From assembly GCF_023091225.1 (NCBI RefSeq), contig NZ_JAHWXM010000001.1, forward strand, positions 2,501,913 to 2,565,912: DNA of 64,000 nt, read 5' to 3'. Every line of letters begins with the position of its first letter. Within the stretch, counting starts at the first letter, position 1. Below are positions 5,091-37,564 of this stretch, in pieces. Source of the DNA: Microbacterium galbinum. Its GTDB lineage: Bacteria; Actinomycetota; Actinomycetes; Actinomycetales; Microbacteriaceae. The position numbers and the translations under genes are program-made. Below the pieces are notes generated by a model that was given only the letters and a program-made list of their open reading frames with translations, was not told where the DNA came from and did not search any database.

Positions 5091-6371
5091 ATGTCGATCA
5101 ACAGCCGAATCTCCGGACTCCGCGATCACACCCCGGATGAGCGCCTCGCGCTCGTCGCGCAGGGTGCGGAGCTGGATGCGGATGCTCTGGGGGCGCTGCG
5201 CCCCGACAGCGGTCTCTCGCTCGCTCAGGCCGACCACATGGTCGAGAACGTCGTGGGTCTCATCGCGGTGCCGGTCGGTGTCGCCACGAACTTCACGATC
5301 GACGGACGCGACCGCCTGATCCCGATGGCCACCGAAGAGCCGAGCGTCGTCGCCGCCGCCTCGAACGCCGCCCGCATGGCCCGCGGTCACGGCGGCTTCA
5401 CGACCTCGTACACGGGCGATGTGATGATCGCCCAGATCCAGGTGCTCGACGCGATCGACCCGCACGGCGCGCGCTTCGCCCTGCTCGAGGCGAAGGACGA
5501 GCTGCTCGAGCTCGCCAACCAGCAGGACCCGATGCTGGTCTCGCTCGGCGGCGGGGCGTTCGACATCTCGGTGCGCGTGCTCCCCACCCGCGCCGGAGTG
5601 CAGGTCATCGTGCACCTGCACGTCGACGTGCGCGATGCGATGGGCGCGAACGCGGTCAACACGATGGCCGAGGCGATCGCCCCGCGTATCGCCGAGCTCG
5701 CCGGCACCCGCACACTGCTGCGCATCCTCACCAACAAGGCCGAGCTGCGCCTCACCCGCGCCCGTGCCGTGTTCGACGCCGAGCTGCTGGGCGGTCCCCA
5801 GGTCGTCGACGACATCGTCGCCGCGAGCGCGTTCGCCGAGGCCGACCCCTACCGTGCCGCCACGCACAACAAGGGCATCATGAACGGCATCACCGCGGTC
5901 GTGCTCGCCACCGGCAACGACACCCGCGCGGTCGAGTCGGGCTGCCACTCGCACGCCGCCCGCGCCGGCGGATACACGGCGCTGTCGCAGTTCGAGAAGG
6001 ATGCCGACGGCAACCTCGTCGGCACGATCGAGGTGCCCCTCGCCGTCGGGCTCGTCGGCGGTGCCACCCGCGCGCACCCCACCGCGCAGGCGTCCGTGAA
6101 GCTGCTCGGCGTCGAGACCGCCCGCGAGCTGGCGAGCGTCATCGCCGCCGTCGGCCTCGCCCAGAACCTCGCCGCCTGCCGGGCGCTCGCCGCCGAGGGC
6201 ATCCAGCGCGGACACATGACCCTGCACGCGCGCACGATCGCGGCATCCGCGGGTGCCGACGTCGACGAGATCGGCGCGGTCGCCGCCCGGATCGTCGCCG
6301 ACCGCCGCATCCGCGTGGAGTACGCCCGCGAGGTGCTCGCCGAACTGCGCGGGGGCGGGGCCGGCGCATGA
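5091..6371 (+). CDS. mvaA: Class II (degradative) hydroxymethylglutaryl-CoA reductase
   Basis: The 426 residues match the Pseudomonas mevalonii type of HMG-CoA reductase. Visible landmarks are ENVVG at 52-56, the NAD-site DAMGAN at 182-187, and catalytic-type Glu83, Lys261 (THNKGIMNG), Asp277 and His379 (near the C-terminal GHMTLHAR). The length also fits class II rather than the longer class I enzymes. In bacteria that lack a mevalonate biosynthetic cluster this enzyme oxidises mevalonate with CoA and two NAD+ to HMG-CoA. The next gene, the lyase, overlaps by ATGA and supports a catabolic direction. The start has GAAGGAAGGTGG upstream; TAGTGT at 5031-5036 is a possible -10 box. It is the first gene of an operon reaching at least 14223. 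Confidence 0.93.
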   Translation: MSINSRISGLRDHTPDERLALVAQGAELDADALGALRPDSGLSLAQADHMVENVVGLIAVPVGVATNFTIDGRDRLIPMATEEPSVVAAASNAARMARGHGGFTTSYTGDVMIAQIQVLDAIDPHGARFALLEAKDELLELANQQDPMLVSLGGGAFDISVRVLPTRAGVQVIVHLHVDVRDAMGANAVNTMAEAIAPRIAELAGTRTLLRILTNKAELRLTRARAVFDAELLGGPQVVDDIVAASAFAEADPYRAATHNKGIMNGITAVVLATGNDTRAVESGCHSHAARAGGYTALSQFEKDADGNLVGTIEVPLAVGLVGGATRAHPTAQASVKLLGVETARELASVIAAVGLAQNLAACRALAAEGIQRGHMTLHARTIAASAGADVDEIGAVAARIVADRRIRVEYAREVLAELRGGGAGA

Positions 6372-7351
6372 CCGCCACGGTCCCGGCGCCCCGGGTGATC
6401 CGCGAGGACGGGCTCCCCGCGCGCGTCACCGTGTTCGAGGTGGGTCCGCGCGACGGCCTGCAGGCCGAGACCGACATCATCCCCGCCGCCGTCAAGATCC
6501 AGCTCTGCCGTCGGCTGTACGCGGCCGGTAGCCGTGACCTCGAGGTCACGAGCTTCGTGCCGCCGACCTGGATCCCCCAGCTCGCCGACGCCGAGCAGGT
6601 CGTCTCCGGCCTCGAGGTGCCCGCGGGCGCCCGCGCCGTCGGGCTCGTGCCGAACCTCCGTGGCCTGCAGCGCGCGATCGACGCCGGCATCCGCGAGGTG
6701 TCGGTGGTCGTCAGCGCCACCGAGTCGTTCGCGAAGGCCAACCTCAACACCACTCGCGCAGGCGCCATCGACCGCGCGGTCGAGGTGATCGCCGCGGCGA
6801 CCGCGCAGGGCATCCCCGTGCGCGGCTACGTCTCGATGGCCTTCGGCGACCCCTGGGAGGGGAGCGTCGACACGGATGCCGTCACCGAAGCCGCCCGCGC
6901 CCTGCACGAGGCCGGTGCCCGGAAGATCGCGATCAGCGACACGATCGGCGTCGCCACGCCCGGTCATACGATCGCGGTCATCGAGGAGGCGCTCGACGCC
7001 GGTATCCCCGTCGAGGCGATCGCCCTGCACCTGCACGACACCTACGGGCAGTCGCTCGCGAACGTGCACGCCGCCCTGCGACTGGGCGTTGCCGAGTTCG
7101 ACGCGTCGGTCGGCGGGCTCGGCCGTTGCCCCTACGCCAAGGGCGCGACCGGTAATCTCGCGACGGAGGACCTCGTGTGGATGCTGCACGGCCTCGGCAT
7201 CGAGACCGGACTCGATCTCGAAGCCCTGGCCGCCACCACGCTCTGGCTCTCCCGCATCCGCACCGTGCGGCCCGCGTCGAACGTGGCCCGCGCGTTCGCG
7301 GCCGCCGGACTCGACACCCCCGAACCCGCACAGGAGGTCACTCCCGCATGA
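6368..7351 (+). CDS. mvaB: Hydroxymethylglutaryl-CoA lyase
   Basis: This 327-residue DRE-TIM metallolyase would split HMG-CoA into acetoacetate and acetyl-CoA. It shows the N-terminal VGPRDGLQ (Arg28, Asp29), SFVPPTWIPQLAD, metal ligands His221 and His223 in HLHDTYGQ, and the lyase signature ending in CPYAKGATGNLATEDL with catalytic-type Cys254. Two segments differ from textbook members: GLGRC instead of GLGGC before the cysteine, and YVSMAFGDPWEG where YVSC-LGCPYEG is usual. A related 3-hydroxyacyl-CoA may therefore be the true substrate. The gene overlaps HMG-CoA reductase (ATGA) and the following CoA-transferase (ATGA), which implies translational coupling. Confidence 0.92.
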   Translation: MTATVPAPRVIREDGLPARVTVFEVGPRDGLQAETDIIPAAVKIQLCRRLYAAGSRDLEVTSFVPPTWIPQLADAEQVVSGLEVPAGARAVGLVPNLRGLQRAIDAGIREVSVVVSATESFAKANLNTTRAGAIDRAVEVIAAATAQGIPVRGYVSMAFGDPWEGSVDTDAVTEAARALHEAGARKIAISDTIGVATPGHTIAVIEEALDAGIPVEAIALHLHDTYGQSLANVHAALRLGVAEFDASVGGLGRCPYAKGATGNLATEDLVWMLHGLGIETGLDLEALAATTLWLSRIRTVRPASNVARAFAAAGLDTPEPAQEVTPA

Positions 7352-8577
7352 TCGACACCACCCTCCCCGCCCCCGGCGCGCTCGCCGGAGTCACCGTGAT
7401 CGACCTGTCGCGCGTGCTCGCCGGCCCCTACGCCTCGCAGACCCTCGCCGACCTCGGCGCGACGGTCATCAAGGTCGAGAACCCGCGCGACCCCGACGTG
7501 TCGCGCGGCTTCCCGCCGTACCTCACCGACGGCGAGGAGGAGTTCAGCGCGTACTACGCCCAGTACAACCGCGGAAAGCTCGGCGTCGGTCTCGACCTCG
7601 CGACCCCCGAGGGCAAGGAGGTGTTGAAGGACCTCGTGCGCGGCGCCGACGTGCTCGTCGAGAACTTCCGCCCCGGCACCATGGAGAAGCTCGGTGTGGG
7701 CTACGAGGTGCTGCGCGAGATCAACCCGCGCCTGGTCTACACCGCCATCTCCGGCTACGGCCGCACGGGGTCCCGCAGCAAGCGCCCCGCCTTCGACAAC
7801 ACGGCCCAGGCCGCGGGCGGCATCTGGTCGATGAACGGCTACGCCGAGCATCCGCCGGTGCGCGTCGGCGTCACGATCGGCGACCTCTCGGCGACCCTGT
7901 TCGCCGTGATCGGCACGCTCGCCGCGCTGCGTCACGCCGAGGCCACCGGCGTCGGCCAGGTCGTCGACGTCGCGCAGGTCGACAGCATCGTCGCCCTCAC
8001 CGAAACCGCTGTGGTCGACTACACGGTCACGGGCAACGTCGCGTCGCCGCAGGGCAACGCGCACGCCTGGGTGCGGCCCTACGAGCTGTTCGACTGCGCC
8101 GACGGTCAGGTCTTCTTCGGCGCGTACACCGACAAGCTCTGGAACGCGAGCTGCGACCTGTTCGGCACCCCCGAGCTCAAGGACGACCCCGAGATCGACA
8201 CCATGCGCAAGCGGTTCGAGACCGATGTGTACGAGCGCCGCGTCAAGCCGATCGTGGCGGGCTGGCTCGCCTCGCGCACCAAGCAGGAGCTCGAGGACCT
8301 CGCGGGCGACGTCGTGCCGCTCACCGCCGTGAAGACGATCGGCGAGGTGGTCGATGACCCCGGCACGGCCGAGCGCGACATGATCGTCGAGGCCGACTAC
8401 GGCGACCTGGGCGTGCTGCGCATGTTCGGTCAGCCGATCAAACTGTCGGAGACGCCCGCGACCCCCGCCCGCACCGCCAACCGCTTCGCCGAGCACGCCG
8501 ACGAGGTGCTGGCGCGGTTCGCCGGGTACGACGCCGCGCGCATCGCCGAGCTGCGTGCCGCCGGGGCACTGCCGTGA
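7348..8577 (+). CDS. Class III (CaiB/BaiF-type) CoA-transferase, paralogue A
   Basis: This 409-residue protein has the family III fold: an N-terminal Rossmann-like segment (VIDLSRVLAGPYAS), DVLVENFRPGTM near 101-112, and Asp179 in IGDLSAT, where the aspartyl-CoA intermediate forms in formyl-CoA transferase. It is closely related to the enzyme at 27943 and more distantly to that at 14405. Set between HMG-CoA lyase and a hydratase, it probably activates the free acid, perhaps 3-hydroxy-3-methylglutarate or an unsaturated relative, using succinyl-CoA or acetyl-CoA; the substrate is inferred. The ATG overlaps the lyase stop, and the next gene starts with a GTG inside its own stop region. Confidence 0.9.
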   Translation: MIDTTLPAPGALAGVTVIDLSRVLAGPYASQTLADLGATVIKVENPRDPDVSRGFPPYLTDGEEEFSAYYAQYNRGKLGVGLDLATPEGKEVLKDLVRGADVLVENFRPGTMEKLGVGYEVLREINPRLVYTAISGYGRTGSRSKRPAFDNTAQAAGGIWSMNGYAEHPPVRVGVTIGDLSATLFAVIGTLAALRHAEATGVGQVVDVAQVDSIVALTETAVVDYTVTGNVASPQGNAHAWVRPYELFDCADGQVFFGAYTDKLWNASCDLFGTPELKDDPEIDTMRKRFETDVYERRVKPIVAGWLASRTKQELEDLAGDVVPLTAVKTIGEVVDDPGTAERDMIVEADYGDLGVLRMFGQPIKLSETPATPARTANRFAEHADEVLARFAGYDAARIAELRAAGALP

Positions 8578-9404
8578 GCACCCCCGCGCCCGTCGTGCGC
8601 ACCGCGCCCATCACCACCGACACCGTCGAGGCGTACCGCGGCACGTTCGCGGCAGCCGATCCGGCGCTCGCCGCGGGCGACCTGCTGCCCACCGCCTGGG
8701 AGGGCGTGTTCTTCCCGTTCGCGGTGCCGCTCGCCGACCTGCGCCCCGACGGCACCCCGGCGCGTGACGGCGTCGTGCCCGAGATCGATCTGCCCCGCCG
8801 CATGTACGCGGGCGAGACGACCGAGTTCCTGCGACCGATCCGCCTCGGCGACGAGGTCGTGCAGACCACGTCCCTGGGCTCGGTGGTCGACAAGACCGGT
8901 TCGCGCGGGCGTCTGACCTTCGTGGACATCGTGCGCGAGTATGCGGTCGCTGGCGAGGTGGCGGTGCGCAGCGTGTGGCACGACGTCTTCCTCGAGGCGG
9001 CGGATCCGGATGCCCCTGCCCGCGCCCCGCGCCCCGACCCGTCGATCGCGGCGGAGGGGGAGTGGGTCGAGGAGCTCACGCCCGACGCCCGCCAACTGTT
9101 CCGGTTCTCGGCGCTCACGTTCAACACGCACCTCATCCACTACGACCGGGCCTGGGCGCGCAACGTGGAGGGCCTGCCCGACCTGCTCGTGCACGGGCCG
9201 TTGACGCGCATCCTGCTGATGGACGCCGCCCGACGGCACACGCCCGAGCGCGTCCCCGCGCGTCTCGACGTGCGGGCGATCGCACCGGTGCTCGTCGACC
9301 GGCCGCTGCGTCTGGTCGGACACACCGCGCCCGACGGCATCCGCGTCACCGCCGTCGACGCCGACGATGTCGTGCTGGCCACCGCCGACATCACCTGGGC
9401 CTGA
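8574..9404 (+). CDS. FAS1-like / MaoC-type acyl-CoA hydratase (mesaconyl-C4-CoA hydratase-like)
   Basis: This 276-residue double hot-dog protein resembles the FAS1-like dehydratases that hydrate branched dicarboxylyl-CoA esters, such as mesaconyl-C4-CoA and 3-methylfumaryl-CoA. The most characteristic segment is FRFSALTFNTHLIHYD near residues 179-194, followed by LPDLLVHGPL. The start is GTG at 8574, overlapping the CoA-transferase stop as GTGA. In this operon it would add or remove water on the CoA ester made by the preceding transferase, before or after the HMG-CoA lyase step. A role in an itaconate/mesaconate-like route is an alternative. Confidence 0.82.
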   Translation: MSTPAPVVRTAPITTDTVEAYRGTFAAADPALAAGDLLPTAWEGVFFPFAVPLADLRPDGTPARDGVVPEIDLPRRMYAGETTEFLRPIRLGDEVVQTTSLGSVVDKTGSRGRLTFVDIVREYAVAGEVAVRSVWHDVFLEAADPDAPARAPRPDPSIAAEGEWVEELTPDARQLFRFSALTFNTHLIHYDRAWARNVEGLPDLLVHGPLTRILLMDAARRHTPERVPARLDVRAIAPVLVDRPLRLVGHTAPDGIRVTAVDADDVVLATADITWA

Positions 9405-9435
9405 CGGCCACCCCACCCCCCCACCTGGAGACACC

Positions 9436-10089
9436 GTGAGGCACAACCCCGATTACGCCCTCGACGACGTCGAGACCGTGCGCGCGCTCGTGCGCGAGAA
9501 CCCGTGGGCGACGATCGTCAGCCACGTGCCCGGCGAGGGTCTCGTCGCCTCGCACTACCCGGTGCTGCTCGAAGAGGATGCCGAGGGCATCTCGATCGTG
9601 AGCCACGTCGGTCGCCCCGACGAGCGCCTGCACCAGCTCGGCCGGCACGAGACGATGGTGATCGTCTACGGACCCCAGGGCTACGTCTCGCCGAGCTGGT
9701 ACGGCACCTCGCCGGCCGTGCCCACGTGGGACTTCGCCGTCGCGCACCTGTTCGGCACCCCCGAGATCCTCTCCGACGACGAGAACCTCGCGGTGCTCGA
9801 CCGCCTCGTGAGCTGGTTCGAGAGCCCGCTGCCCGACCCGTACCTGATGCATCGCACGCTCGAGAACACCGCCTACGCCGAGCGCATCGTGCACGGCACC
9901 GTGGGCTTCCGCCTGCGGGCCACCCGCATCGAGGCCAAGGAGAAGATGCACCAGGACAAGTCCCCCGAGGTGATCGCGCGCGTCGTCGAGGCGCTGCGCA
10001 ACCCCGGCCCCTATGAGAACCCGAAGCTCGCCGATCGCATCGCGGATGTGAACCGCGACGTCCTCGATGGAAAGGAAGTGACCGCATGA
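9436..10089 (+). CDS. PaiB-like FMN-binding protein
   Basis: The protein has 217 residues if started at GTG 9436, which has GGAG (9427-9430) upstream; an upstream ATG at 9367 would add a Pro-rich stretch out of family. It matches the PaiB/FMN-binding split-barrel group, with SHYPVLLEE, HVGRPDERLHQL and VPTWDFAVAHLFG as recognisable segments. PaiB was first described as a negative regulator in Bacillus, but many members look like flavoproteins acting on small molecules. Here it is an operon member between a hydratase and an OCD-like reductase, so a flavin-dependent step is as likely as regulation. It overlaps the next gene by ATGA. Confidence 0.78.
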   Translation: MRHNPDYALDDVETVRALVRENPWATIVSHVPGEGLVASHYPVLLEEDAEGISIVSHVGRPDERLHQLGRHETMVIVYGPQGYVSPSWYGTSPAVPTWDFAVAHLFGTPEILSDDENLAVLDRLVSWFESPLPDPYLMHRTLENTAYAERIVHGTVGFRLRATRIEAKEKMHQDKSPEVIARVVEALRNPGPYENPKLADRIADVNRDVLDGKEVTA

Positions 10090-11114
10090 CCGCGTTCGTC
10101 GGAGTGGGTGACATGGTCGAGTGGATCTCGCGCCGCGGAGCCGAGACGATCATGACCGAGATGGCCGACACGATCGAGGCGGACTTCCGCCGGTGGGAGT
10201 CGTTCGACAAGAGCGAGCGCGTCGCCAATCACACGCCGTTCGGCGTGATCGAGCTCATGCCGATCAGCGACCCCGACGTGTACGCGTTCAAGTACGTCAA
10301 CGGCCACCCGTTCAATCCGGGTCGCGGGTATCAGACGGTGACGGCGTTCGGTGTGCTCGCCGATGTGCACAACGGTTACCCGGTGTTCCTCGCCGAGATG
10401 ACGATGCTCACGGCGCTGCGCACGGCGGCGACGTCGGCGATGGTCGCCCGCAGGCTCGCGCGCCCCGACTCCACCACCATGGCGATGATCGGGGCGGGCA
10501 GCCAGGCCGAGTTCCAGGCTCTCGCGTTCCGCGAGGTGCTGGGTGTCTCGCGGTTGCGGATCTACGACGTCGACCCTGCGGCGTCGGCGAAGTTCGTGCG
10601 CAACCTCGCCCCGCGCGGGTTCGACATCACGGTGTGCGCGTCGGCGTCGGAGGCCGCCGCCGGCGCCGACATCGTCACGACGTGCACGGCCGACAAGGCG
10701 GTCGCGCAGGTGCTGACGGATGCCGATGTCGCCCCGGGCATGCACATCAACACGATCGGCGGCGACTGCCCGGGCAAGACCGAGCTCGACCCGCGGATCC
10801 TCGATCGCGGTCCGGTGTTCGTGGAGTACACGCCGCAGACGCGCGTCGAGGGCGAGATCCAGAACGTCGCCGCCGACTTCCCGGTCACGGAGTTCTGGCA
10901 GGTGCTGAACGGGACGGCTGCGGGACGCACCTCGCCCGAGCAGGTGACGATCTTCGACTCGGTCGGCTTCGCGATCGAGGACTTCTCGGCGCTGCGCCAC
11001 CTGCGCGCCGACCTCGTGGGCACGGGGCTGGACACCGAGATCGACCTCGTCGCCGCCCCCGAGGACCCGAAGGACCTCTTCGGCTTCGCGACCTCGCCCG
11101 TCCCCGTCGCCTGA
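10086..11114 (+). CDS. Ornithine cyclodeaminase / mu-crystallin family oxidoreductase
   Basis: These 342 residues belong to the OCD/mu-crystallin family. A substrate domain (1-130) with the conserved KYVNGHPFNPGRG loop precedes a Rossmann domain beginning MIGAGSQAEFQ near 135-145, an acidic cofactor residue in IYDVDP, and DCPGKTELD. Relatives are ornithine cyclodeaminase, alanine dehydrogenase and ketimine reductases, so the reaction could be deamination or reduction of a cyclic imine. Its place next to amidohydrolases suggests that the natural substrate carries an amino or imino group. It is translationally coupled to the PaiB-like gene. Confidence 0.85.
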   Translation: MTAFVGVGDMVEWISRRGAETIMTEMADTIEADFRRWESFDKSERVANHTPFGVIELMPISDPDVYAFKYVNGHPFNPGRGYQTVTAFGVLADVHNGYPVFLAEMTMLTALRTAATSAMVARRLARPDSTTMAMIGAGSQAEFQALAFREVLGVSRLRIYDVDPAASAKFVRNLAPRGFDITVCASASEAAAGADIVTTCTADKAVAQVLTDADVAPGMHINTIGGDCPGKTELDPRILDRGPVFVEYTPQTRVEGEIQNVAADFPVTEFWQVLNGTAAGRTSPEQVTIFDSVGFAIEDFSALRHLRADLVGTGLDTEIDLVAAPEDPKDLFGFATSPVPVA

Positions 11115-11176
11115 CCGGCGGCCCCGCCCGCCGACCCCGACCATCCCCGCGCGTGCCGCGCGCCGAGAGGAGCAGC

Positions 11177-12646
11177 ATGACCGAGTCCCTCACCCTGCGG
11201 GACGTGCGCCCGTACGACGGCGGTGAGCCGGTCGACGTGCTCGTGCGCGACGGAGTGATCGCCGAGATCGGCCCCGCCGGAACGGTCGTACCCGCGGGCG
11301 AGGTCGTCGAGGCGGGTGGTCGCTGGATCGGCCCGGGGTTCTGGGACGCGCACGTGCACTTCACGCAGCACGTGATCCGTCGCCGGCGCCTCGACCTCAC
11401 CGAGACCCGCACCGCCGACGACGTGCTCGACATCGTGCGGCGGGCGCGCGCCGAGGGCGCCCCGCTGAGCGACGGGATGCTGATGGGCTACGGGTTCCGC
11501 GACGGGCTGTGGCCCGTGCCCGCCTCGCTCGCGGCCCTCGAGGCCACGGTCAGCGACATCCCGGTCGTGCTCGTGAGCGGCGATCTGCACTGCGGCTGGA
11601 TGAACCGTGCCGCGGCCGCGCGCCTGGGTGTCGAGCTCGACGAGACGGGGCTGCTGCGCGAGGGGCCGTGGATCGGCATCCTGCATGATTTCGACGAGGC
11701 CGCGCAGCTGCCGGCGGATGCCTATGCGGATGCCGCGTCGGCCGCCGCCGCCCGCGGCGTCGTGGGAATCGTCGAGTACGAGAAGACCGACAATATCGCC
11801 GAATGGTCGGCGCGCACGGCGGGTGGGCTCACGAGCCTGCGCACCGACATCGCGGTGTGGCCCGACCTGCTCGAACAGGTGATCGCCACGGGCGTCCGCA
11901 CCGGCGACATCGTCGACGAGGCGGGTCTGGTCACCTTCGGCCGGCTCAAGGTCGTCGTCGACGGCTCGCTGAACACCCGCACCGCCTGGTGCTGGGACCC
12001 GTACCCCGGCATGGACCCCGGCCACCCGCACGCCTGCGGCATGGAGAGCGTGCCGATCCCCGAGCTGCGCCGCCTGCTCGAACGCGCCCGCGGCGCCGGT
12101 ATCGAGGCCGCCGTGCACGCGATCGGCGACCGCGCGAACACCGAGGTGCTCGACACGTTCCAGGCCCTCGACATGAAGGGCGTGATCGAGCACGCCCAGC
12201 TCGTGCGAGACGACGACTTCGCCCGCTTCGCCGCGCTCGGCCAGATCGCCAGCGTGCAGCCCGAGCACGCCATGGACGACCGCGACGTCGCCGACCACCA
12301 CTGGGCGGGCCGCACCGGTCGCGCCTTCGCGTTCGGTTCGCTGCACCGCTCGGGCGCGACCCTGCGCCTGGGCTCGGATGCCCCGGTCGCCCCGCTCGAC
12401 CCGTGGATCTCGCTCAGCGCGGCCACCGCGCGCAGCCGCGGCGACCGCGACGCCTGGCACCCCGAACAGCGTCTTCCGCTCGACGTGGCGCTCGCGGCAT
12501 CCGTTCGTACCTCGTTCGCCGTCGGGCAGCCCGCCGACCTCGTGATCGGCGACCGCGACCCCTACGCGAGCGACCGCGACGAACTGCGGTCCATGCCCGT
12601 CGCCGCCACCCTGCTCGGCGGCCGCTTCACCCACCGGGAGCTGTGA
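11177..12646 (+). CDS. YtcJ-like amidohydrolase 1
   Basis: This 489-residue metal-dependent amidohydrolase (COG1574 group) shows the first metal pair His59-x-His61 in WDAHVHF, a substrate loop SLNTRTAWCWDP, the later histidine region HAIGDRAN and the strand-8 aspartate in GSDAPVAPLDP. It lacks a signal peptide. YtcJ-type enzymes hydrolyse N-acyl or cyclic amide compounds, and most are uncharacterised. The start at 11177 follows GAGAGGAGCAGC. It is closely linked to a second member of the same family at 12646 (one-base overlap), so the two probably act on related substrates or form a heteromer. Confidence 0.88.
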   Translation: MTESLTLRDVRPYDGGEPVDVLVRDGVIAEIGPAGTVVPAGEVVEAGGRWIGPGFWDAHVHFTQHVIRRRRLDLTETRTADDVLDIVRRARAEGAPLSDGMLMGYGFRDGLWPVPASLAALEATVSDIPVVLVSGDLHCGWMNRAAAARLGVELDETGLLREGPWIGILHDFDEAAQLPADAYADAASAAAARGVVGIVEYEKTDNIAEWSARTAGGLTSLRTDIAVWPDLLEQVIATGVRTGDIVDEAGLVTFGRLKVVVDGSLNTRTAWCWDPYPGMDPGHPHACGMESVPIPELRRLLERARGAGIEAAVHAIGDRANTEVLDTFQALDMKGVIEHAQLVRDDDFARFAALGQIASVQPEHAMDDRDVADHHWAGRTGRAFAFGSLHRSGATLRLGSDAPVAPLDPWISLSAATARSRGDRDAWHPEQRLPLDVALAASVRTSFAVGQPADLVIGDRDPYASDRDELRSMPVAATLLGGRFTHREL

Positions 12647-14223
12647 TGACCACTTTCACCAACGGCCGTGTGTTCACGGGCGAGAGCGAGACCGCGTTCG
12701 CCTCGGCGTTCCGCGTCGTCGACGGGATCGTCGACTGGGTCGGCGATGCGGCGGACGTGACCGATGCGGATGCCGTCGACCTCGGCGGCCGCACCGTGCT
12801 GCCCGGACTGCTCGACAGTCACACGCACCCCGCGCTGCTCGCCGGAACCGCGGCGGCCGCGGAGTGCTTCCCGCCCGCCGTGCTCAGCGCCGACGACCTC
12901 GTGCGCGTGCTCGACGCGCACGCCGCGACGATCAGCGGGGCGGATGCCTGGGTGCTGGGGCGCGGATTCGACGACACCAAATTCCCGGAGGGGCGGATGC
13001 CGACGGCCGCCGACCTCGACCGCATCGCCACCGATCGCCCGGCGCTGGTCTGGCGCTGCGACGCGCACTCGGCCGTCTGCAACACCCGCGCGCTCGAGAT
13101 CGCCGGCATCACCGCCACGACGGTCGACCCCGAGGGGGCGCGGTTCGAACGCGACGCCGACGGCAACCCGAACGGGGTGCTCACCGAGATCGCGGCGGTC
13201 AACGTGGTGGCAGCCTTCATCCCGGCGCAGAGCCGCGACGAGCAGATCGATGCGATCGTGGCGATCGGCGACGAGCTCGCCTCACGCGGCATCGTGGCGG
13301 TCTGCGACCTGCTGTCGTCGCGCATCGACCGCCCGCTCGAGACCTTCCGCGCCGCCGCCGAGCGCGGCCTGCGCACCCGCGTCGCTCTGTACCCGGGGTG
13401 GGACCCGGAGGCGCCCCTCGGGGAGCTGACCGACGACGACCGCACCGGGCCGATCCGCATCGCGGGCGTGAAGGTCGTGCTCGACGGCGCGTACTCCAAC
13501 CGCACCGCCTGGGTGCACGAGGCCTACCCCGACTCCTGCGACCACGGCCTGCGTCTCGTCGACGACGCCGACGTGCTCGCGGCCGGCGACTGGGCCCGCC
13601 GCAACGGCGTGCAGCTCGCCGTGCACGCGATGGGCGACCGGGCGCTCGACCGCGTCGTGGAGCTGTTCGAGGATCAGGAGCCGTGGCTCGACGGCATCCC
13701 CTCGGTGCGCATCGAGCACGCGACGATCGTGAGCGACGCGTATCTCGCGCGACTGGGATCGGGGCGGATGTCGTTCGGCATCGCCACGCACACGGTGTTC
13801 TTCTTCGCCGAGTACGACGGGTACGAGAAGGCGCTGCGCGTCGAGCAGGTGCCGGATGCCTACCCGATCGCGCGCCTGTACGCGGGGCTCGAGCCGCTGG
13901 CACTGTCGTCGGACCGGCCGGCCACCGCGTGGAGCGGAGCCGACGATGTGATGCTCTCGGTCGAGGCCGCCGTGCGGCGCCGCACCTACAACGGCATCGA
14001 GTTCGGCGCCGAGGCGGCGATCACCGTGCCGCAGGCGCTGCTGCTGTACACCTCGCGGGCGGCTTCGCTGTCGCCGCTGGAGGGTGTCGGGCGCCTCGTA
14101 CCGGGGCTCGACGGCAGCTTCGCCGTGCTCGACCGCGACGTCTTCACGGTGCCCGACGACGAGATCGCCTCCGTGCGCGTGGCCGAGACCTGGATCCGCG
14201 GCGAGCGGGTGTTCGTGCGCTGA
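12646..14223 (+). CDS. YtcJ-like amidohydrolase 2
   Basis: The protein has 525 residues from the ATG at 12646, whose A is also the last base of the preceding stop codon; an in-frame GTG lies one codon upstream. It shares the family plan with its neighbour: His59-x-His61 in LDSHTHP, the AYSNRTAWVHEAYPDSC loop, HAMGDRAL and a conserved aspartate in SSDRPATAW. It is the last gene of the uninterrupted operon starting at 5091. A hairpin of the CTTCGACAGG family follows at 14247-14313. Confidence 0.88.
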   Translation: MTTFTNGRVFTGESETAFASAFRVVDGIVDWVGDAADVTDADAVDLGGRTVLPGLLDSHTHPALLAGTAAAAECFPPAVLSADDLVRVLDAHAATISGADAWVLGRGFDDTKFPEGRMPTAADLDRIATDRPALVWRCDAHSAVCNTRALEIAGITATTVDPEGARFERDADGNPNGVLTEIAAVNVVAAFIPAQSRDEQIDAIVAIGDELASRGIVAVCDLLSSRIDRPLETFRAAAERGLRTRVALYPGWDPEAPLGELTDDDRTGPIRIAGVKVVLDGAYSNRTAWVHEAYPDSCDHGLRLVDDADVLAAGDWARRNGVQLAVHAMGDRALDRVVELFEDQEPWLDGIPSVRIEHATIVSDAYLARLGSGRMSFGIATHTVFFFAEYDGYEKALRVEQVPDAYPIARLYAGLEPLALSSDRPATAWSGADDVMLSVEAAVRRRTYNGIEFGAEAAITVPQALLLYTSRAASLSPLEGVGRLVPGLDGSFAVLDRDVFTVPDDEIASVRVAETWIRGERVFVR

Positions 14224-14313: not shown

Positions 14314-14404
14314 GGCCCACCCCGCGCCCCGTTCGGTGTGCGCAGCACCCATCGCCGACGGCATCCGCTCGTCGATAACCTCGCTCGGGAGCGAAGGGGC
14401 GACG

Positions 14405-21436: not shown

Positions 21437-21437
21437 C

Positions 21438-22481: not shown

Positions 22482-22484
22482 GAC

Positions 22485-29208: not shown

Positions 29209-29981
29209 TGGGCATCCGTCTCGACCGCACGGGTGGCATCGGCGTCATCACGATCGACCGCCCCGAGAAGCTCAACGCGTTGACGCTCGCGATGTACGAC
29301 GAACTCGGCGCCGCGTTCGCGGAGGTGCAGGGCGACCCGCGCATCGGCGTCGCGGTGCTGACGGGGGCGGGGGAGCGCGCGTTCTGCGTCGGCGCCGATC
29401 TGGGCGAATCGATCCCGGCGCTCACCGAGGAGCGCTTCGACATCAGTGAATGGGATGCCGCGCACCAGAAGCACTCGACGCTCGAGAAGCCGGTGGTCGC
29501 CGCGATCAACGGACTGTGCCTCGGCGGCGGGTTCGAGATCATGCTGTCGACCGACATCCGCCTCGCCTCGGCGGATGCCCAGTTCGCGCTGCCCGAGACC
29601 GGTGTCGGCGTCGTGCCGGCCGGGGGTACCCTCGTGCGGCTCATCCGGCAGATCCCCTACGCGTTCGCGATGGACCTCATGCTGCGCGGCGACCGCATCG
29701 ACGCCGAGACCGCGCTGCGGTACGGGCTCGTGAACCGGGTGGTCGAGGCATCCGCTCTGCACGACGAAGCGATCGCCGTCGCCGAGCAGCTGCTCACGAA
29801 GAGCGCCACAGCGCTCGCGACCGTGAAGCGGGCCGTGCGTGCGCTCGCCGACCTGCCCGAGTCCGAGGCGTTCCGCCTCGAAGCGGTGCTGGGCCAGCAG
29901 GCGTTCGCGAGCGACGACGCCCGCGAGGGCCTCGCCGCCTTCGCCGAGCGCCGCCCCCCGCGGTTCCCGTCGCGGGGCTAG
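29208..29981 (+). CDS. Enoyl-CoA hydratase/isomerase family protein
   Basis: A 257-residue crotonase-fold protein with the oxyanion segments FCVGADLG and CLGGGFEIML, and Glu130 (LPETGVG) at the position of crotonase Glu144. The second acid, Glu164 of crotonase, appears as Asp156 in YAFAMDLMLRGDRI. That substitution may shift it from simple hydration toward isomerisation or another crotonase reaction. By context it acts on the CoA ester formed by the preceding transferase. A 3-methylglutaconyl-CoA hydratase role would feed HMG-CoA lyase, but that is inference. Confidence 0.85.
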   Translation: MGIRLDRTGGIGVITIDRPEKLNALTLAMYDELGAAFAEVQGDPRIGVAVLTGAGERAFCVGADLGESIPALTEERFDISEWDAAHQKHSTLEKPVVAAINGLCLGGGFEIMLSTDIRLASADAQFALPETGVGVVPAGGTLVRLIRQIPYAFAMDLMLRGDRIDAETALRYGLVNRVVEASALHDEAIAVAEQLLTKSATALATVKRAVRALADLPESEAFRLEAVLGQQAFASDDAREGLAAFAERRPPRFPSRG

Positions 29982-29988
29982 CTGGTCC

Positions 29989-30080
29989 CTGAGCCCGTCG
30001 AAGGGCCCTTCCGTGTGACTGGGTCCCTGAGCCTGTCGAAGGGCCCCGCCCGCATGACTGGGTCCCTGAGCCTGTCGAAG
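29989..30080. repeat. Three tandem CTGAGCCTGTCGAAG units, 38-39 bp period
   Basis: CTGAGCC(C/T)GTCGAAG begins at 29989, 30027 and 30066, all in the same orientation, with spacers such as GGCCCTTCCGTGTGACTGGGTCC. It fills the gap between the hydratase and the PucR gene. Confidence 0.85.
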
Positions 30081-30131
30081 GGTCCCACCCCGGGCGAGTG
30101 GGCGTGGGAAGGTGGGGGTGAGAGGAGCCTC

Positions 30132-32054
30132 ATGGCCGAGAACACCGCGTCCGCGCTCGTGCGCGAGGTCGTCGCGGCTGCGCGCGCCGAGCCGGGGGAG
30201 CGGATGCTCGCGCTCACGCAGTTGCTCACCGAGGCGGATGCCGCGGTATCCGATGTCGAGGAGATCCTCGCCGCGGTGCAGGAGTCGCAGCAGCAGACCG
30301 CACGGCTGCGGAGGCGCACCGTCGAACTCGAGGCGCTCTTCTCGACCGCGCGCGAACTCGTGCGACTGCAGGACGTGACCGACGTGCTGCGCCGCCTCGT
30401 TCAGCGCGCGCACGAACTCATGGGCACCGACGTCACGTACCTCTCGGAGGTCGACAACGCGCAGGGCGATCTGCGCGTGCGGTACTCGGCGGGCACGGTG
30501 ACACCGGAGTTCCGCGACCTGCTCGTGCCCGCCGGGTTCGGCCTCGCGAGCCTGGTCGCCGACTCCCGCGAACCGGTCTGGGTGCGCGAGTACACGCGCA
30601 TGGCGGATGCTCCGCACGACCCCTCCATCGACGATGCGGTCGCGCGCGAGGGGCTCGTCTCGTTCCTCGGCGTGCCGCTGGCCGTCGGCGACGAGGTGCT
30701 CGGAGCGCTGTTCGCCTGCAACCGGTTCGCCCACGACTTCACGCCCGACCAGGTGCTGCTGCTCTCGGCGTTCGCCGATCATGCCGCCGCCGTGCTGCAC
30801 AGCGCCCGCGTGCTGGCCGAGAGCGCGGCTGCTCGCGCCCGCGCCGAAGAGGCGTACGGCGAGCTGGAGCGCCACCTCGCCGCGACGCAGATCGTCGGCG
30901 GCATCCATGAAGAGCTCACCGCCGCCGTCGTCTCGGGCGCGACCCTGATCGACCTCGTCGCGACGGTGTCGGATCGCCTCGGGCGGCGCGTGCGCGCGGT
31001 CGACGAGACGGGGCTTCCCCTCGATACGGGAGCGGACGCCCGTGCGGGCCTGCCGCGCCGCAGGCCCCTCACCGATGCGATCCGGGAGAGCCGGGCGAGC
31101 GGGCATGCGGTCGCGGTGGTCGACGGGGAGCTCCGGTGGCTGGTGGTCGCGATCCTCGGTGCCGACCGGGTGCTCGGTGCGATGGTCGCCGATGACGAGG
31201 ACGCCGTGCCCGACGACGTCGCCCGCCCCACGCTCGAGCGCGCCGCGCAGGTCGCCGCTCTCGTCTCCTTCAAACGCGATGCCGTCTCGGCGATCCGCGC
31301 CGAACGCCGTGCACGTGTGCTCGGTGCGGTGCTCGACGGTTCGGCCGAGGCATCCGTTCTCTCCGCCGAGGTCGTGCACCCGCTCGTGGGCGCGGCGGCG
31401 ATCGATGTGCGCGGGCGCGAGGGTGCGCTGACGGTGGCCGCGGATGCCGTCGGCGACCACGGCCTCGTCACGGTGCGCGAACACGGGCTCGTGGTCGCGT
31501 GGACGGCATCCGTCGACGGGCCCGGGGCCGGGGCCGGTCTCGTGGCCGCGACCGAGCGGGTGCGGCGGATCCTCGCCGAGAAGCTCGACGATCCGTCGGT
31601 CACCGCGGTCGTCGGCGCGACGGTCGACGGGGTGCCGGCGCTACGCGCGTCGGTCGAGCGTGCCGTGCGCGATCTGCGGTTCCTGGGGCCGCTCGGGGTG
31701 TCGGGGGAGACCGTGCGGTCGGACGACTTCGCGCCGTATCACGTGCTCTCCTCGGGGGAGCCGGAGGCGGCCGCCCGATTCGTCGACGGGGTGCTCGGGC
31801 CGGTGCACGCGTGGGACGAACGGCGCGGCACGGCGCTCGTCGACACCCTCGTCGCCTACTTCGACGCGGGGGAGAGCCGCCAGGGGGCGGCGACGGCGCT
31901 GCGCGTGCACACGAACACGGTGCAGCAGCGGCTCGACCGGATCTGGACGCTGCTCGACGGCGACCCCGCGGATGCCGAGTACCGGTTCCGCCTGCAGGCC
32001 GCCGTGCGACTCGAGCGCCTCCGGCGGGAGTTGCTCGGGCTTCCCGGTTCCTGA
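30132..32054 (+). CDS. PucR/CdaR-type regulator with GAF domain, paralogue
   Basis: This 640-residue regulator is built like the protein at 2022: a Leu/Gln-rich helix (about 30-65), a GAF-type domain (about 70-215), a middle region and a PucR helix-turn-helix near 585-635 (ATALRVHTNTVQQRLDR). The ATG follows GAGAGGAGCCTC. Its last codons and stop (GGT TCC TGA) are part of a GGTTCCTGAGCGAGGAGCG genomic repeat, so the C-terminus may have been set by repeat insertion. It lies directly before the second ABC importer, which it probably controls. Confidence 0.9.
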   Translation: MAENTASALVREVVAAARAEPGERMLALTQLLTEADAAVSDVEEILAAVQESQQQTARLRRRTVELEALFSTARELVRLQDVTDVLRRLVQRAHELMGTDVTYLSEVDNAQGDLRVRYSAGTVTPEFRDLLVPAGFGLASLVADSREPVWVREYTRMADAPHDPSIDDAVAREGLVSFLGVPLAVGDEVLGALFACNRFAHDFTPDQVLLLSAFADHAAAVLHSARVLAESAAARARAEEAYGELERHLAATQIVGGIHEELTAAVVSGATLIDLVATVSDRLGRRVRAVDETGLPLDTGADARAGLPRRRPLTDAIRESRASGHAVAVVDGELRWLVVAILGADRVLGAMVADDEDAVPDDVARPTLERAAQVAALVSFKRDAVSAIRAERRARVLGAVLDGSAEASVLSAEVVHPLVGAAAIDVRGREGALTVAADAVGDHGLVTVREHGLVVAWTASVDGPGAGAGLVAATERVRRILAEKLDDPSVTAVVGATVDGVPALRASVERAVRDLRFLGPLGVSGETVRSDDFAPYHVLSSGEPEAAARFVDGVLGPVHAWDERRGTALVDTLVAYFDAGESRQGAATALRVHTNTVQQRLDRIWTLLDGDPADAEYRFRLQAAVRLERLRRELLGLPGS

Positions 32055-33853: not shown

Positions 33854-33880
33854 GTCGCGCGGGGTGACCGCCCTGGGATG

Positions 33881-34008: not shown

Positions 34009-34044
34009 GGTCCCGCCCCGAGACGCACACGGAGGAGGAACGAC

Positions 34045-35933: not shown

Positions 35934-37564
35934 ACGCGCTGATCCGGGTCGAGGGCCTGACCGTGTCGTTCGGAGGTCGCACGGCCGTCGAGGGCGTCGG
36001 TTTCGAGATCGGCCCCGGCGAGTGCGTCGCGCTGGTCGGTGAGTCGGGATCGGGCAAGTCGGTCAGCGCGCGCAGCCTGCTCGGACTCGTCGGCACGGGA
36101 TCCCGGGTGGATGCCGAGGTGCTCGAGATCGACGGCGTCGACGCGCGACGGTTCTCCGAACGCCGCTGGCGCCGCATCCGTGGCCGCCGCATCGGGTACA
36201 TCCTGCAGGACGCCCTCTCGTCGCTCGACCCGCTGCGCACGGTGGGCAAGGAGGTGCGCGAGGCGATCGCCGCGACCGGCGGACCGCGTGGACGGGCCGG
36301 CCGCGAACGTGCGCTCGACCTGCTGCGCCGCACTCACGTGCCCGATCCCGCGACGCGCATCGACGAGCGTCCGGCGCAGCTCTCCGGCGGTCAGCGCCAG
36401 CGCGCGCTCATCGCCACCGCGCTCGCCGGAGACCCCGCCGTGCTCATCGCCGACGAGCCGACGACCGCGCTCGACGTGTCGGTGCAGAAGCAGATCCTCG
36501 CCCTGTTCAGCGAGCTCAAGCAGCAGGGCATCGCGCTGCTGCTCATCAGTCACGACCTCGCCGTGGTGTCGCAGCTCGCCGACCGCGTGCTGGTGCTGCA
36601 GGGCGGCGCCGTGGTCGAGAAGGGCGAGACCGCCGACGTCCTGTCGAACCCCGAGCATCCGTACACCCGCTCCCTCATCGACGCCGCCCCGCGGTTCGAC
36701 AGCGGGCCGGCCCCGCACGACTTCGGAGATTCGACCGGACACGCCGGGGCCCAGCATCCGACCACCGGGGTGTCGCCCCAGATCTCCGAAGATGTGCAGG
36801 CAGTGGAGGCCTCCGGGGCATCCGACGTCGTCCTCGCCGCCGAGCACGTGAGCAAGACCTTCCGCCTGCCGGGTGGCGCGACGCGCCCCGCGGTGAAGGA
36901 CGTCTCGATCGCCGTGCGCCGCGGGCGGTCGCTCGGCGTCGTGGGCGAATCCGGGTCGGGCAAGACGACGGTCGCGCGCATCCTGGCCGGGTTCGAGACC
37001 GCGGATGCCGGAACCGTGCGCCGTGCGAGCGACGACCCGCGCGACGTGCAGTTCGTCTACCAGGATCCGGGGTCGTCGTTCGACCCGCGCTGGACCGCGG
37101 GACGCCTTCTCGACGAGGCGATCGGGCTGCGGCATCCGTCCCTGTCGCGCACGGAGCGCGGTGCGCGCGTGCGGGACTGGCTCGAGCGAGTCGGACTCCC
37201 GGCGGACTTCGCCGACCGGCGGCCCTCGTCGCTGTCGGGCGGTCAGCGTCAGCGGCTCGGCATCGCCCGGGCGCTCGCCGTGGAGCCCGCGGTGGTCGTG
37301 CTCGACGAGCCGGTGTCGGCGCTCGACGTGGCGGTGCAGAAGCAGATCCTCGAGCTCATCGCGCGTCTGCAGGCCGAGACCGGTGTCGGATACCTCTTCA
37401 TCTCGCACGATCTCGGTGTGATCCAGAAGGTCTGCGACGAGGTCGTGGTGCTGCAGGGCGGCGTGGTGCGCGAGCAGGGTCTCACCTCGCAGGTGATGCG
37501 TGCCCCGGCCGACGCGTACACGCGCCTGCTGATCGACGCGGTTCCCTCGCTCCCCGCCGTCTGA
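35930..37564 (+). CDS. Double ABC ATPase (DppD-DppF-like fusion)
   Basis: These 544 residues contain two complete ATPase domains. The first has Walker A GESGSGKS at 37-44, SGGQRQRALI and LIADEPTTALD. The second has GESGSGKT near 342, SGGQRQRLGI and VVLDEPVSALD. Domain 1 ends with the HPYTRSLIDAAP motif of oligopeptide ATPases. The inter-domain linker (about residues 262-289) is encoded by a genomic REP-like palindrome (36715-36797) that also occurs in noncoding DNA at 1190-1272. The insertion stays in frame and lies outside both catalytic cores. Confidence 0.92.
   Translation: MNALIRVEGLTVSFGGRTAVEGVGFEIGPGECVALVGESGSGKSVSARSLLGLVGTGSRVDAEVLEIDGVDARRFSERRWRRIRGRRIGYILQDALSSLDPLRTVGKEVREAIAATGGPRGRAGRERALDLLRRTHVPDPATRIDERPAQLSGGQRQRALIATALAGDPAVLIADEPTTALDVSVQKQILALFSELKQQGIALLLISHDLAVVSQLADRVLVLQGGAVVEKGETADVLSNPEHPYTRSLIDAAPRFDSGPAPHDFGDSTGHAGAQHPTTGVSPQISEDVQAVEASGASDVVLAAEHVSKTFRLPGGATRPAVKDVSIAVRRGRSLGVVGESGSGKTTVARILAGFETADAGTVRRASDDPRDVQFVYQDPGSSFDPRWTAGRLLDEAIGLRHPSLSRTERGARVRDWLERVGLPADFADRRPSSLSGGQRQRLGIARALAVEPAVVVLDEPVSALDVAVQKQILELIARLQAETGVGYLFISHDLGVIQKVCDEVVVLQGGVVREQGLTSQVMRAPADAYTRLLIDAVPSLPAV
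36715..36797. repeat. REP-like inverted repeat, copy 2, inside the double ABC ATPase gene
   Basis: GCACGACTTCGGAGATTCGA, GACACGCCGGGG, AGCATCCG, CCGGGGTGTCG and CCGAAG-TGTGC occur in the same order and spacing as in 1190-1272. Here the element is read in frame as a hydrophilic linker rich in His, Gly, Asp and Pro. Confidence 0.85.

What the first reader, a model, noticed from the sequence alone, without database searches (positions are those of the whole stretch)
5091..37564. An HMG-CoA-centred catabolic island combined with cyclic-amide hydrolysis and two peptide-type importers
Catabolic HMG-CoA reductase and lyase are translationally coupled to a CoA-transferase, a FAS1-like hydratase, a PaiB-like flavoprotein, an OCD-like enzyme and two YtcJ amidohydrolases. 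Nearby are DUF917/HyuA, M20 peptidase, two family 5 importers, an MHS symporter, two more CoA-transferases and a crotonase. The known mevalonate route of Pseudomonas mevalonii needs only reductase, lyase and acetoacetate activation. The added amide, lactam and imine enzymes imply a substrate with both a branched C5-C6 acid and a nitrogen part. I know of no described pathway with this gene set.
Basis: partly seen in the sequence, partly recalled or inferred. Interest (0 to 1): 0.7.

Follow-up and report, generated by a model that had tools for sequence, protein, structure and literature searches.

The report
Island for eating fungal hydroxamate siderophores
A Microbacterium gene island appears to break down the iron-binding molecules (siderophores) that fungi secrete, turning their two building blocks, anhydromevalonate and N-hydroxyornithine, into ordinary carbon and nitrogen food; if so it would supply candidate genes for a process described from biochemistry in the 1960s.

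Summary
The genes are there and the HMG-CoA operon is real. The window is Microbacterium (nearest named record M. galbinum). The 'PaiB flavoprotein' is by sequence closest to NohD, a heme enzyme solved with N-hydroxylated ornithine (by fold tied with piperazate synthases and PaiB). The 'OCD-like' protein is a true ornithine cyclodeaminase; the 'FAS1 hydratase' is nearest itaconyl-CoA hydratase; degradative HMG-CoA reductase and lyase complete it. The two halves point to N5-anhydromevalonyl-N5-hydroxyornithine, the unit of fungal fusarinines and coprogens; I propose the island catabolises it. In 18 of 19 Microbacterium island-type loci read, reductase, lyase, CoA-transferase, hydratase, NohD-like enzyme and YtcJ amidohydrolase travel together, even when rearranged; the nineteenth genome has both halves apart. 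Five plain mevalonate loci lack the last three. Three loci carry proline/P5C dehydrogenase in the operon; one genome has the nitrogen half without the HMG half. DUF917/HyuA, one importer and M20 belong to the island; the importer at 32141-37564 does not. Relatives in another family lack the NohD-like and cyclodeaminase genes. Nothing has been tested; hydroxamate hydrolysis, ring opening and the acyl group are inferred, and no siderophore permease lies in the window.

The parts
2022..4007 (-). GAFreg1: GAF + PucR-type HTH_30 regulator, divergent from the HMG operon
   Evidence: Pfam; 18 of 18 island-type loci (50-100% identity); also near HMGR in Rhodococcus, G658, G643, G857, G721
4018..5049 (-). 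ABhyd: alpha/beta hydrolase; proposed esterase or lactonase that opens ester-linked siderophores (or anhydromevalonolactone)
   Evidence: Pfam; NCBIfam macrolide esterase and PcaD models match far below cut-off; 14 of 18 loci; next to the acyl module in G658, G643, G857, G721
5091..6371 (+). HMG-CoA reductase, degradative (class II); proposed mevalonate + CoA -> HMG-CoA
   Evidence: TIGR00532 444 bits, cut-off 260; solved relatives 6dio, 9v7y, 1qax (1qax is the P. mevalonii enzyme, recalled)
6368..7351 (+). HMG-CoA lyase
   Evidence: PRK05692 336 bits, cut-off 246; nearest solved 2ftp, then 2cw6 mitochondrial lyase
7348..8577 (+). CoAT1: family III CoA-transferase; proposed mevalonyl-CoA:anhydromevalonate CoA-transferase
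   Evidence: PF02515; 18 of 18 loci, 80-100% identity; 4-nt overlaps on both sides
8574..9404 (+). hydratase: FAS1-like type, nearest itaconyl-CoA hydratase; proposed anhydromevalonyl-CoA -> mevalonyl-CoA
   Evidence: PF13452; 8khg 136 bits; 18 of 18 loci; 4 of 394 class genomes have it outside the genus
9436..10089 (+). NohD-like heme protein (PaiB family); proposed N5-hydroxyornithine dehydratase
10086..11114 (+). OCD: ornithine cyclodeaminase (ornithine -> proline + NH3)
   Evidence: NF005762 532 bits, cut-off 350; ornithine cyclodeaminase 1u7h 386 bits, full length; 16 of 18 loci
11153..12646 (+). YtcJ1: Amidohydro_3 metal hydrolase; proposed hydroxamate (N5-acyl) hydrolase
   Evidence: PF07969; 18 of 18 loci; lies between CoAT1 and hydratase in G658 and G643
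12646..14223 (+). YtcJ2: second Amidohydro_3 hydrolase
   Evidence: PF07969 260 bits; ortholog (73% or more) in 15 of 18 loci
14336..15541 (+). CoAT2: family III CoA-transferase, accessory
   Evidence: PF02515; at 70% identity or more in 8 of 18 loci including the window
15555..17033 (-). PucR/CdaR-type regulator of the DUF917/HyuA block
   Evidence: Pfam; 59-100% identity in 16 of 18 loci
17107..18213 (+). DUF917 (S-Me-THD-like) protein
   Evidence: PF06032/PF20906; 16 of 18 loci
18210..19784 (+). HyuA (hydantoinase/oxoprolinase A-like, 524 aa); proposed ring (diketopiperazine) opening with DUF917
   Evidence: PF05378/PF01968; 16 of 18 loci
19871..25078 (+). peptide-type ABC importer: SBP5a, permease, permease+ATPase fusion, second ATPase
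   Evidence: Pfam; SBP5a in 16 of 18 loci at 48% or more, travelling with DUF917/HyuA
25078..26292 (+). M20 amidohydrolase/deacylase; proposed N-acyl amino acid deacylase
   Evidence: TIGR01891 276 bits, cut-off 154; DoeB2 253 bits, below its 550 cut-off; 15 of 18 loci
26603..27946 (+). MHS-type symporter, accessory
   Evidence: 5 of 18 loci at 86% or more
27943..29981 (+). CoAT3 + crotonase (ECH): second CoA-transferase/hydratase pair
   Evidence: ECH at 77% or more in 6 of 18 loci; near plain HMGR-HMGL in G410 and in Rhodococcus; fungal SidH 7oeq is in the ECH hit list at 118 bits, far from top
30015..32054 (+). GAFreg2: regulator of the CoAT3/ECH block
   Evidence: Pfam; beside ECH/CoAT3 in GCS4, 1.5R, TPD7012, G486 and G410
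57208..58632 (-). MFS transporter whose orthologs sit near the acyl module or island elsewhere; possibly an anhydromevalonate/mevalonate carrier
   Evidence: Pfam; 77-92% identity near the module in G832, G857, GCS4, 1.5R and fluvii

Best explanation
The island is a catabolic pathway for fungal hydroxamate siderophores built from N5-anhydromevalonyl-N5-hydroxyornithine (AMHO; fusarinines, coprogens, dimerumic acid), used as carbon and nitrogen source. Proposed order: peptide-type importers bring in siderophores or fragments (inferred). The alpha/beta hydrolase cuts esters, DUF917/HyuA and M20 open the ring and remove N-acyl groups (inferred, weakest). YtcJ1 hydrolyses the hydroxamate to anhydromevalonate and N5-hydroxyornithine (inferred). 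Acid half: CoAT1 makes anhydromevalonyl-CoA, the hydratase makes mevalonyl-CoA, CoAT1 passes the CoA to the next anhydromevalonate and frees mevalonate, degradative HMG-CoA reductase gives HMG-CoA, the lyase gives acetyl-CoA and acetoacetate (last two enzymes firmly assigned by family, the first two steps inferred). Nitrogen half: the NohD-like heme enzyme dehydrates N5-hydroxyornithine to an imine, hence glutamate semialdehyde/P5C (inferred); ornithine goes to proline by OCD (assigned by family); PutA, in the operon in some relatives, finishes at glutamate.
Against: No experiment. No FecCD siderophore permease lies in the window (12 matches in the genome, 11 over the cut-off, all elsewhere), and a recalled DtxR-box consensus has 0 matches with up to 3 mismatches. 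In G721, G658 and G643 (another family) the acid half comes with YtcJ1, ABhyd and the FAD oxidase, but the genomes hold no close NohD-like protein (29-37% only) and no close OCD (none at 1e-20 in two, 31% in G643). In G832 the halves are apart. OCD is missing from JB110 (not among the 24 matches) and lies on another contig in G545. G857 shows no lyase gene in the 40 kb seen. The FAD oxidase is conserved in 17 of 18 loci and has no sure place in the scheme. No acetoacetate-activating enzyme was assigned. ABhyd (missing from 4 of 18 loci), YtcJ1, HyuA/DUF917 and M20 have no substrate-specific evidence. The PaiB-YtcJ pair also has housekeeping paralogs. The hydratase's nearest solved relative acts on itaconyl-CoA, and ECH's best matches are ordinary hydratases. 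The CoA-cycling role of CoAT1 is chemistry by analogy.
Confidence: 0.66

Rival explanations
1. Same kind of pathway but the acyl group is another branched one, chiefly beta-methylglutaconyl (ferrichrome A type) or a mix: methylglutaconate -> methylglutaconyl-CoA -> HMG-CoA -> lyase, with the reductase serving a side stream of mevalonate.
For: The hydratase and ECH could make HMG-CoA directly; two CoA-transferase/hydratase pairs exist in 6 of 18 loci (CoAT1+hydratase, CoAT3+ECH); a Pseudomonas that degrades ferrichrome A is on record (a passage and reference titles in PMC11800396).
Against: A methylglutaconyl route needs no HMG-CoA reductase, yet the reductase is the first gene of the acid operon in the window and the island-type loci were found with it (partly circular, since HMGR was the search query for many). 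Methylglutaconyl-CoA hydratase 1hzd is far down the ECH list.
Confidence: 0.12
2. Several independent pathways parked side by side: mevalonate/anhydromevalonate use, ornithine/N-hydroxyornithine use, and lactam or peptide use, with no common substrate.
For: Each block has its own regulator gene (GAFreg1, PucR, GAFreg2). G832 has the acid half apart from the rest; G462 and G482 lack it in the stretch seen and have no HMGR at 1e-60. Plain mevalonate operons exist in the genus. G721, G658, G643 lack close NohD-like and OCD genes.
Against: The blocks stay together in 18 of 19 Microbacterium loci read and remain neighbours after rearrangement; genome-wide co-occurrence; in G832 and G857 the unlinked halves share the genome; YtcJ1 sits inside the acid operon in two genomes of another family.
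Confidence: 0.15
3. The NohD-like protein is a piperazate synthase and the island serves piperazate-containing natural products (make or break).
For: Same fold family, and it has the Tyr/Asp/Lys of piperazate synthases.
Against: It lacks the synthase Asn63 and Ala100 equivalents (Gly59, Val95), positions that the NohD mutants A59N and V96A alter; no condensation or carrier domain of an NRPS appeared among the 43 window ORFs scanned with Pfam (one AMP-binding protein at 60291-62129 is of acyl-CoA synthetase type).
Confidence: 0.03

Closest known systems
Mevalonate catabolism of Pseudomonas mevalonii type (degradative HMG-CoA reductase + lyase)
   Same: Same two enzymes, degradative-type reductase (TIGR00532; 1qax family)
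   Different: Adds CoA-transferase, hydratase and the nitrogen block; plain loci in the same genus have a TctA-type transporter instead
NohD, heme-dependent N-hydroxylamine dehydratase
   Same: 37-39% identity over the fold, heme His, catalytic Thr/Lys, Val at V96
   Different: Tyr147 and Lys175 where NohD has Arg144 and Leu; sits in a catabolic operon (NohD's own gene context is unknown to me: the paper is not held)
Fungal siderophore biosynthesis SidI-SidH-SidF
   Same: The same intermediates, mevalonyl-CoA and anhydromevalonyl-CoA, run backwards (PMC3709128 passages)
   Different: Opposite direction and mostly different enzyme families; only ECH matches SidH by sequence
Itaconate degradation (CoA-transferase, itaconyl-CoA hydratase, CitE-type lyase; gene set recalled)
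   Same: CoA-transferase III plus a hydratase that makes a tertiary alcohol
   Different: HMG-CoA lyase in place of a CitE-type lyase at the core; reductase present
Bacterial siderophore catabolism (Pseudomonas FC-1 on ferrichrome A; desferrioxamine degraders)
   Same: Hydroxamate siderophores used as carbon and nitrogen source (PMC11800396 passages and reference list)
   Different: The passages I saw name no genes; different acyl groups (recalled for ferrichrome A: methylglutaconyl)

Membership tests
Degradative (class II) HMG-CoA reductase | passes curated equivalog cut-off TIGR00532 | tested here: met
   444.3 bits, cut-off 259.95
Degradative (class II) HMG-CoA reductase | catalytic Glu/Lys/Asp/His motifs (recalled) | tested here: met
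   TEEPS, NKG, GNDTRA, LHAR present; motif list from memory
HMG-CoA lyase | passes subfamily cut-off PRK05692 | tested here: met
   336.4 bits, cut-off 246
Ornithine cyclodeaminase | passes equivalog cut-off NF005762 | tested here: met
   532.2 bits, cut-off 350; aligned over its length to 1u7h
NohD (N-hydroxylamine dehydratase) | heme His and catalytic Thr98/Lys167 | tested here: met
   H57, T97, K170 invariant in 24 of 24; alignment; mutant titles
NohD (N-hydroxylamine dehydratase) | fold closest to NohD rather than to synthases or PaiB | tested here: inconclusive
NohD (N-hydroxylamine dehydratase) | Arg144 (wild type) | tested here: not met
   Tyr147 here, as in piperazate synthases; hence called NohD-like, not NohD
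NohD (N-hydroxylamine dehydratase) | dehydrates N5-hydroxyornithine | not testable with these tools
   needs the purified protein
Piperazate synthase | Asn63 and Ala100 equivalents | tested here: not met
   Gly59 and Val95 here
Itaconyl-CoA hydratase | substrate itaconyl-CoA | not testable with these tools
   nearest solved relative, 136 bits; no NCBIfam family matched
Thiohydantoin desulfurase (DUF917) | passes NF058532/NF058529 cut-off | tested here: not met
   118.3 of 450 and 95.6 of 440 bits
Caprolactamase/hydantoinase HyuA-HyuB | passes NF050156 cut-off and has a HyuB partner | tested here: not met
   84.4 of 1000 bits, for an ORF of 731 aa that contains HyuA; no hydantoinase B among 13 ORFs scanned at 14336-32054
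Mevalonate catabolism of P. mevalonii type | reductase + lyase as the pathway core | tested here: met
   but extra conserved genes

The most novel reading that the evidence does not exclude
A complete, mobile route by which actinobacteria eat fungal iron carriers: fusarinines/coprogens are opened by ester, diketopiperazine (ATP-dependent DUF917/HyuA) and hydroxamate hydrolases. Anhydromevalonate is activated by a self-sustaining CoA cycle (one family III CoA-transferase moves CoA from mevalonyl-CoA to the next anhydromevalonate), and a NohD-like heme enzyme strips the N-hydroxyl nitrogen. This would be an ecological attack on fungal iron supply as well as a meal.
Probability: 0.3. Interest if true: 0.85.

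Novelty: new variant of a known kind. Interest (0 to 1): 0.7.

Why it matters
Bacteria that live on hydroxamate siderophores have been described since 1964-65 (titles in the reference list of PMC11800396), but in the listings and passages I saw I found no gene set for it. This island gives named, orderable genes and strains, and would give a physiological role to a NohD-like heme enzyme and to degradative HMG-CoA reductases that are linked to CoA-transferase and hydratase. It would also mean that Microbacterium in soil, on plants or on cheese may remove fungal coprogens, which matters for fungal iron supply and biocontrol. Most steps can be assayed with purified enzymes.

Tried and rejected
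Rejected: (a) plain mevalonate use: it explains the reductase and lyase but not the hydratase, NohD-like protein, YtcJ1 and OCD, absent from 5 of 5 plain loci read. (b) Ergothioneine/thiohydantoin or caprolactam-type pathway from DUF917/HyuA: curated cut-offs not reached. (c) The importer at 32141-37564 as a part: best matches of its binding protein in the 17 other loci are 27-32%, so window-only among 18 loci. (d) PaiB-YtcJ pairs elsewhere in Microbacteriaceae as siderophore clues: of 68 loci fetched (L043-L110) the PaiB cluster is in 66, and the commonest neighbours are an amidohydrolase (58), a DNA-glycosylase-sized gene (57) and an isomerase-sized gene (50); in the own genome these are YtcJ, an Fpg-type glycosylase and RpiB. 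This looks like a housekeeping context and says nothing for siderophores.

Led nowhere: DtxR-box scan; Rfam (one tRNA); Proteobacterial plasmid HMGR loci (5 read, H2, H3, H5, H9, H17, besides Rhodococcus H1, of 37 plasmid records with a match): HMGR with various transporters, in three of the five with a lyase; hydratase on plasmids (207 records, none covering 80% of the query, best places under 60% identity); literature searches for anhydromevalonate, NohD or siderophore-catabolism genes: nothing on such a gene set in the rows listed (10-25 rows each, one row). Two papers on siderophore degradation by extracellular enzymes and by a fungus (PMC12364333, PMC10866069) were seen in listings only.

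Limits of the counts. Of the 24 HMGR loci in 149 Microbacterium genomes I did not read the surroundings of G525, G519, G469, G527, G448, G481 and G446 through their handles (some seem to be the named loci L034, L037, L036 and aerolatum, judged by contig and place). The 18 island loci mix genus-draw genomes and named ones; many were found through HMGR or the PaiB-like protein, so their joint presence is partly by choice. G832 (found through the hydratase) came after that table and is counted apart; G893, also found so, has PaiB, OCD and YtcJ1 directly behind its hydratase and was not read further. In G491, G499, G482 and G439 the stretch seen is short or ends early, so absences there are weak.


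Full report
What is in the window. The sequence is 70.9% G+C, from a 3.57-Mb, 4-contig genome. The nearest named record is Microbacterium galbinum SSW1-36 (PaiB-like protein 100% identical). The operon HMGR-HMGL-CoAT1-hydratase-PaiB-OCD-YtcJ1-YtcJ2 runs from 5091 to 14223 with 4-nt overlaps in two blocks and small gaps between them. The genome also has a separate biosynthetic mevalonate cluster (HMG-CoA synthase, a second HMG-CoA reductase, three GHMP-type enzymes), so the window copy is the degradative one (TIGR00532 444 bits, cut-off 260).

OCD is a full ornithine cyclodeaminase (532 bits, cut-off 350; 386 bits to ornithine cyclodeaminase 1u7h). In M. aerolatum, G502 and G499 a PutA-type proline dehydrogenase/P5C dehydrogenase is inserted between hydratase and PaiB, which fits a flow to P5C, proline and glutamate.

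The acid half. The hydratase is nearest to itaconyl-CoA hydratase (136 bits), an enzyme that makes a tertiary alcohol (recalled). Together with a family III CoA-transferase, HMG-CoA reductase and lyase it fits anhydromevalonate -> anhydromevalonyl-CoA -> mevalonyl-CoA -> mevalonate -> HMG-CoA -> acetyl-CoA + acetoacetate. Fungi make the same CoA esters in the other direction and attach anhydromevalonyl to N5-hydroxyornithine (PMC3709128, passages). Coprogen cultures contain dimerumic acid, N-acetyl fusarinine and AMHO (PMC12278577, passages). I know of no other natural product that joins these two units (recalled, not searched exhaustively).

Conservation. One scan of named genomes gave 80 loci of PaiB-like genes, 12 of which (L031-L042) are of the island kind by gene neighbours (L035 and L036 are short or cut). 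Degradative HMGR at E <= 1e-60 is in 4 of 396 genomes drawn from the phylum, own included, and in 23 of 149 Microbacterium genomes (24 loci: 19 at 78% or more, 5 at 61-63%). I read the surroundings of 18 island-type loci (window, GCS4, 1.5R, TPD7012, aerolatum, fluvii, JB110, G430, G412, G545, G502, G491, G499, G520, G427, G497a, G486, G496) and 5 plain ones (G497b, G472, G474, G410 and, from the phylum draw, G050). Counts: GAFreg1, HMGL, CoAT1, hydratase, PaiB, YtcJ1 18 of 18; FAD oxidase 17; OCD, PucR, DUF917, HyuA, SBP5a 16; M20 and YtcJ2 15; ABhyd 14; upstream importer 11; cupin 11; CoAT2 8; CoAT3 and ECH 6; a 2Fe-2S reductase + PNPOx-type flavoprotein pair 5; MHS 5; PutA 3; the 32141-37564 importer 1 (the window itself). 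Plain loci: hydratase, PaiB, OCD, YtcJ1, FAD oxidase 0 of 5; TctA-type transporter 4 of 5; CoAT3+ECH 1 of 5. In G430, G412 and G496 the same genes form separate neighbouring operons in another order. A nineteenth Microbacterium locus, G832, found through the hydratase, has GAFreg1-HMGR-HMGL-CoAT1-hydratase alone in 40 kb; its NohD-like (70%), YtcJ1 (65%) and OCD (62%) genes lie together elsewhere, within 12 kb of each other at C2:1311952-1323427.

The identity cuts were chosen after seeing the lists and kinship is not corrected, so the Fisher values (5e-21, 5e-20) overstate.

Exceptions that inform. G462 keeps FAD oxidase, ABhyd, OCD, PutA, PaiB, YtcJ1, DUF917, HyuA, importer and M20 but has none of the acid half in the 55 kb seen and no HMGR at 1e-60 in the genome, as expected if its siderophores carry acetyl instead. 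Outside the genus, 4 of 394 class genomes have the hydratase, and a Saccharopolyspora protein at 73% is in the protein search. G658 and G643 (same family as G721) have HMGR-HMGL-CoAT1-YtcJ1-hydratase-ABhyd with the FAD oxidase beside. These three genomes have no close NohD-like protein (29-37%) and no close OCD. G857 (a further family) has HMGR, CoAT1, hydratase and ABhyd, no lyase in the stretch seen, and OCD (66%), an importer, a PNPOx/2Fe-2S pair and an M19 dipeptidase within 40 kb; its NohD-like protein (67%) and YtcJ1 (62%) are neighbours farther along the same contig. So the tightest core is acid half + YtcJ1 (+ ABhyd + FAD oxidase), and the NohD-like/OCD pair is the Microbacterium and G857 solution for the nitrogen. 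This tells against NohD/OCD being indispensable, and leaves the FAD oxidase (303 bits to the N-methyl-L-tryptophan oxidase model, cut-off 257) as an unexplained core member. Proline or N-methyl amino acid oxidation are candidates.

What is shown and what is inferred. Shown: gene content, curated family membership of HMGR, HMGL and OCD, NohD-like sequence and residues, conserved linkage. Inferred: substrate, order of steps, roles of YtcJ1, ABhyd, DUF917/HyuA, M20, CoA cycling, import. Against: no siderophore permease in the window, no iron box, no acetoacetate activation assigned.

Known and new. Catabolism of hydroxamate siderophores as food is known biochemically (PMC11800396 passages). In searches of the held library I saw no gene set for anhydromevalonyl siderophores in the rows listed; subscription papers are mostly not held, and the NohD paper could not be read. 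I file it as a new variant of a known kind: a new catabolic route made of known enzyme families.

Recounting changed these points: G832 is now counted as an exception to the linkage (18 of 19), fold similarity is told as tied, ABhyd, importer and cupin counts were added, and searches were made.

Noticed in passing
L111:15200-17334 (own genome C1:556200-558334): Second PaiB-YtcJ pair next to an Fpg-type DNA glycosylase and RpiB; the same neighbourhood recurs across Microbacteriaceae (PaiB cluster 66, amidohydrolase 58, glycosylase-sized gene 57 of 68 loci). A conserved pair of unknown role, perhaps hydroxylamine detoxification.
   Followed up: partly
L185:9336-10904 (G462); also G430, G412, G496, fluvii, TPD7012, G482, G857: A 2Fe-2S reductase plus PNPOx-type flavoprotein pair recurs near the island genes (5 of 18 island loci); a candidate N-O reductase for hydroxamate or N-hydroxyornithine.
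   Followed up: partly
L112:3509-4636, about 7 kb upstream of window start: FAD oxidase of the N-methyl-L-tryptophan oxidase/monomeric sarcosine oxidase family, in 17 of 18 island loci and in three genomes of another family at 70-72%; no sure role in the proposed pathway.
   Followed up: partly
window 57208-58632 (-): MFS transporter whose 77-92% orthologs sit near the acid module or island in G832, G857, GCS4, 1.5R and fluvii; in the window it is about 25 kb from the last conserved island gene.
   Followed up: partly
L169:11342-12181 (G545); a gene of the same size and place in JB110: HpcH/HpaI (CitE-type) lyase and a distant family III CoA-transferase next to M20 in the two genomes that lack OCD at the island: an alternative acyl branch?
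   Followed up: no
window 37871-50125: Large F5/8-type C domain protein, ABC importer, alpha-L-fucosidase, LacI regulator and GH35 beta-galactosidase: a glycan-use locus, apparently unrelated to the island.
   Followed up: no
G472, G474, G497 second copy, G050: Plain mevalonate operons GAF regulator-HMGR-HMGL-small protein-TctA: tripartite-tricarboxylate-type transporter as a likely mevalonate carrier in actinobacteria.
   Followed up: partly
L175:994-11233 (G499): M14 carboxypeptidase, M17 aminopeptidase, an amidase and an importer inserted before HMGR in G499's island: extra peptide-cleaving capacity.
   Followed up: no
window 59340-62129 (-): AMP-binding acyl-CoA synthetase type protein next to a DUF1295 membrane protein; function not examined.
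   Followed up: no
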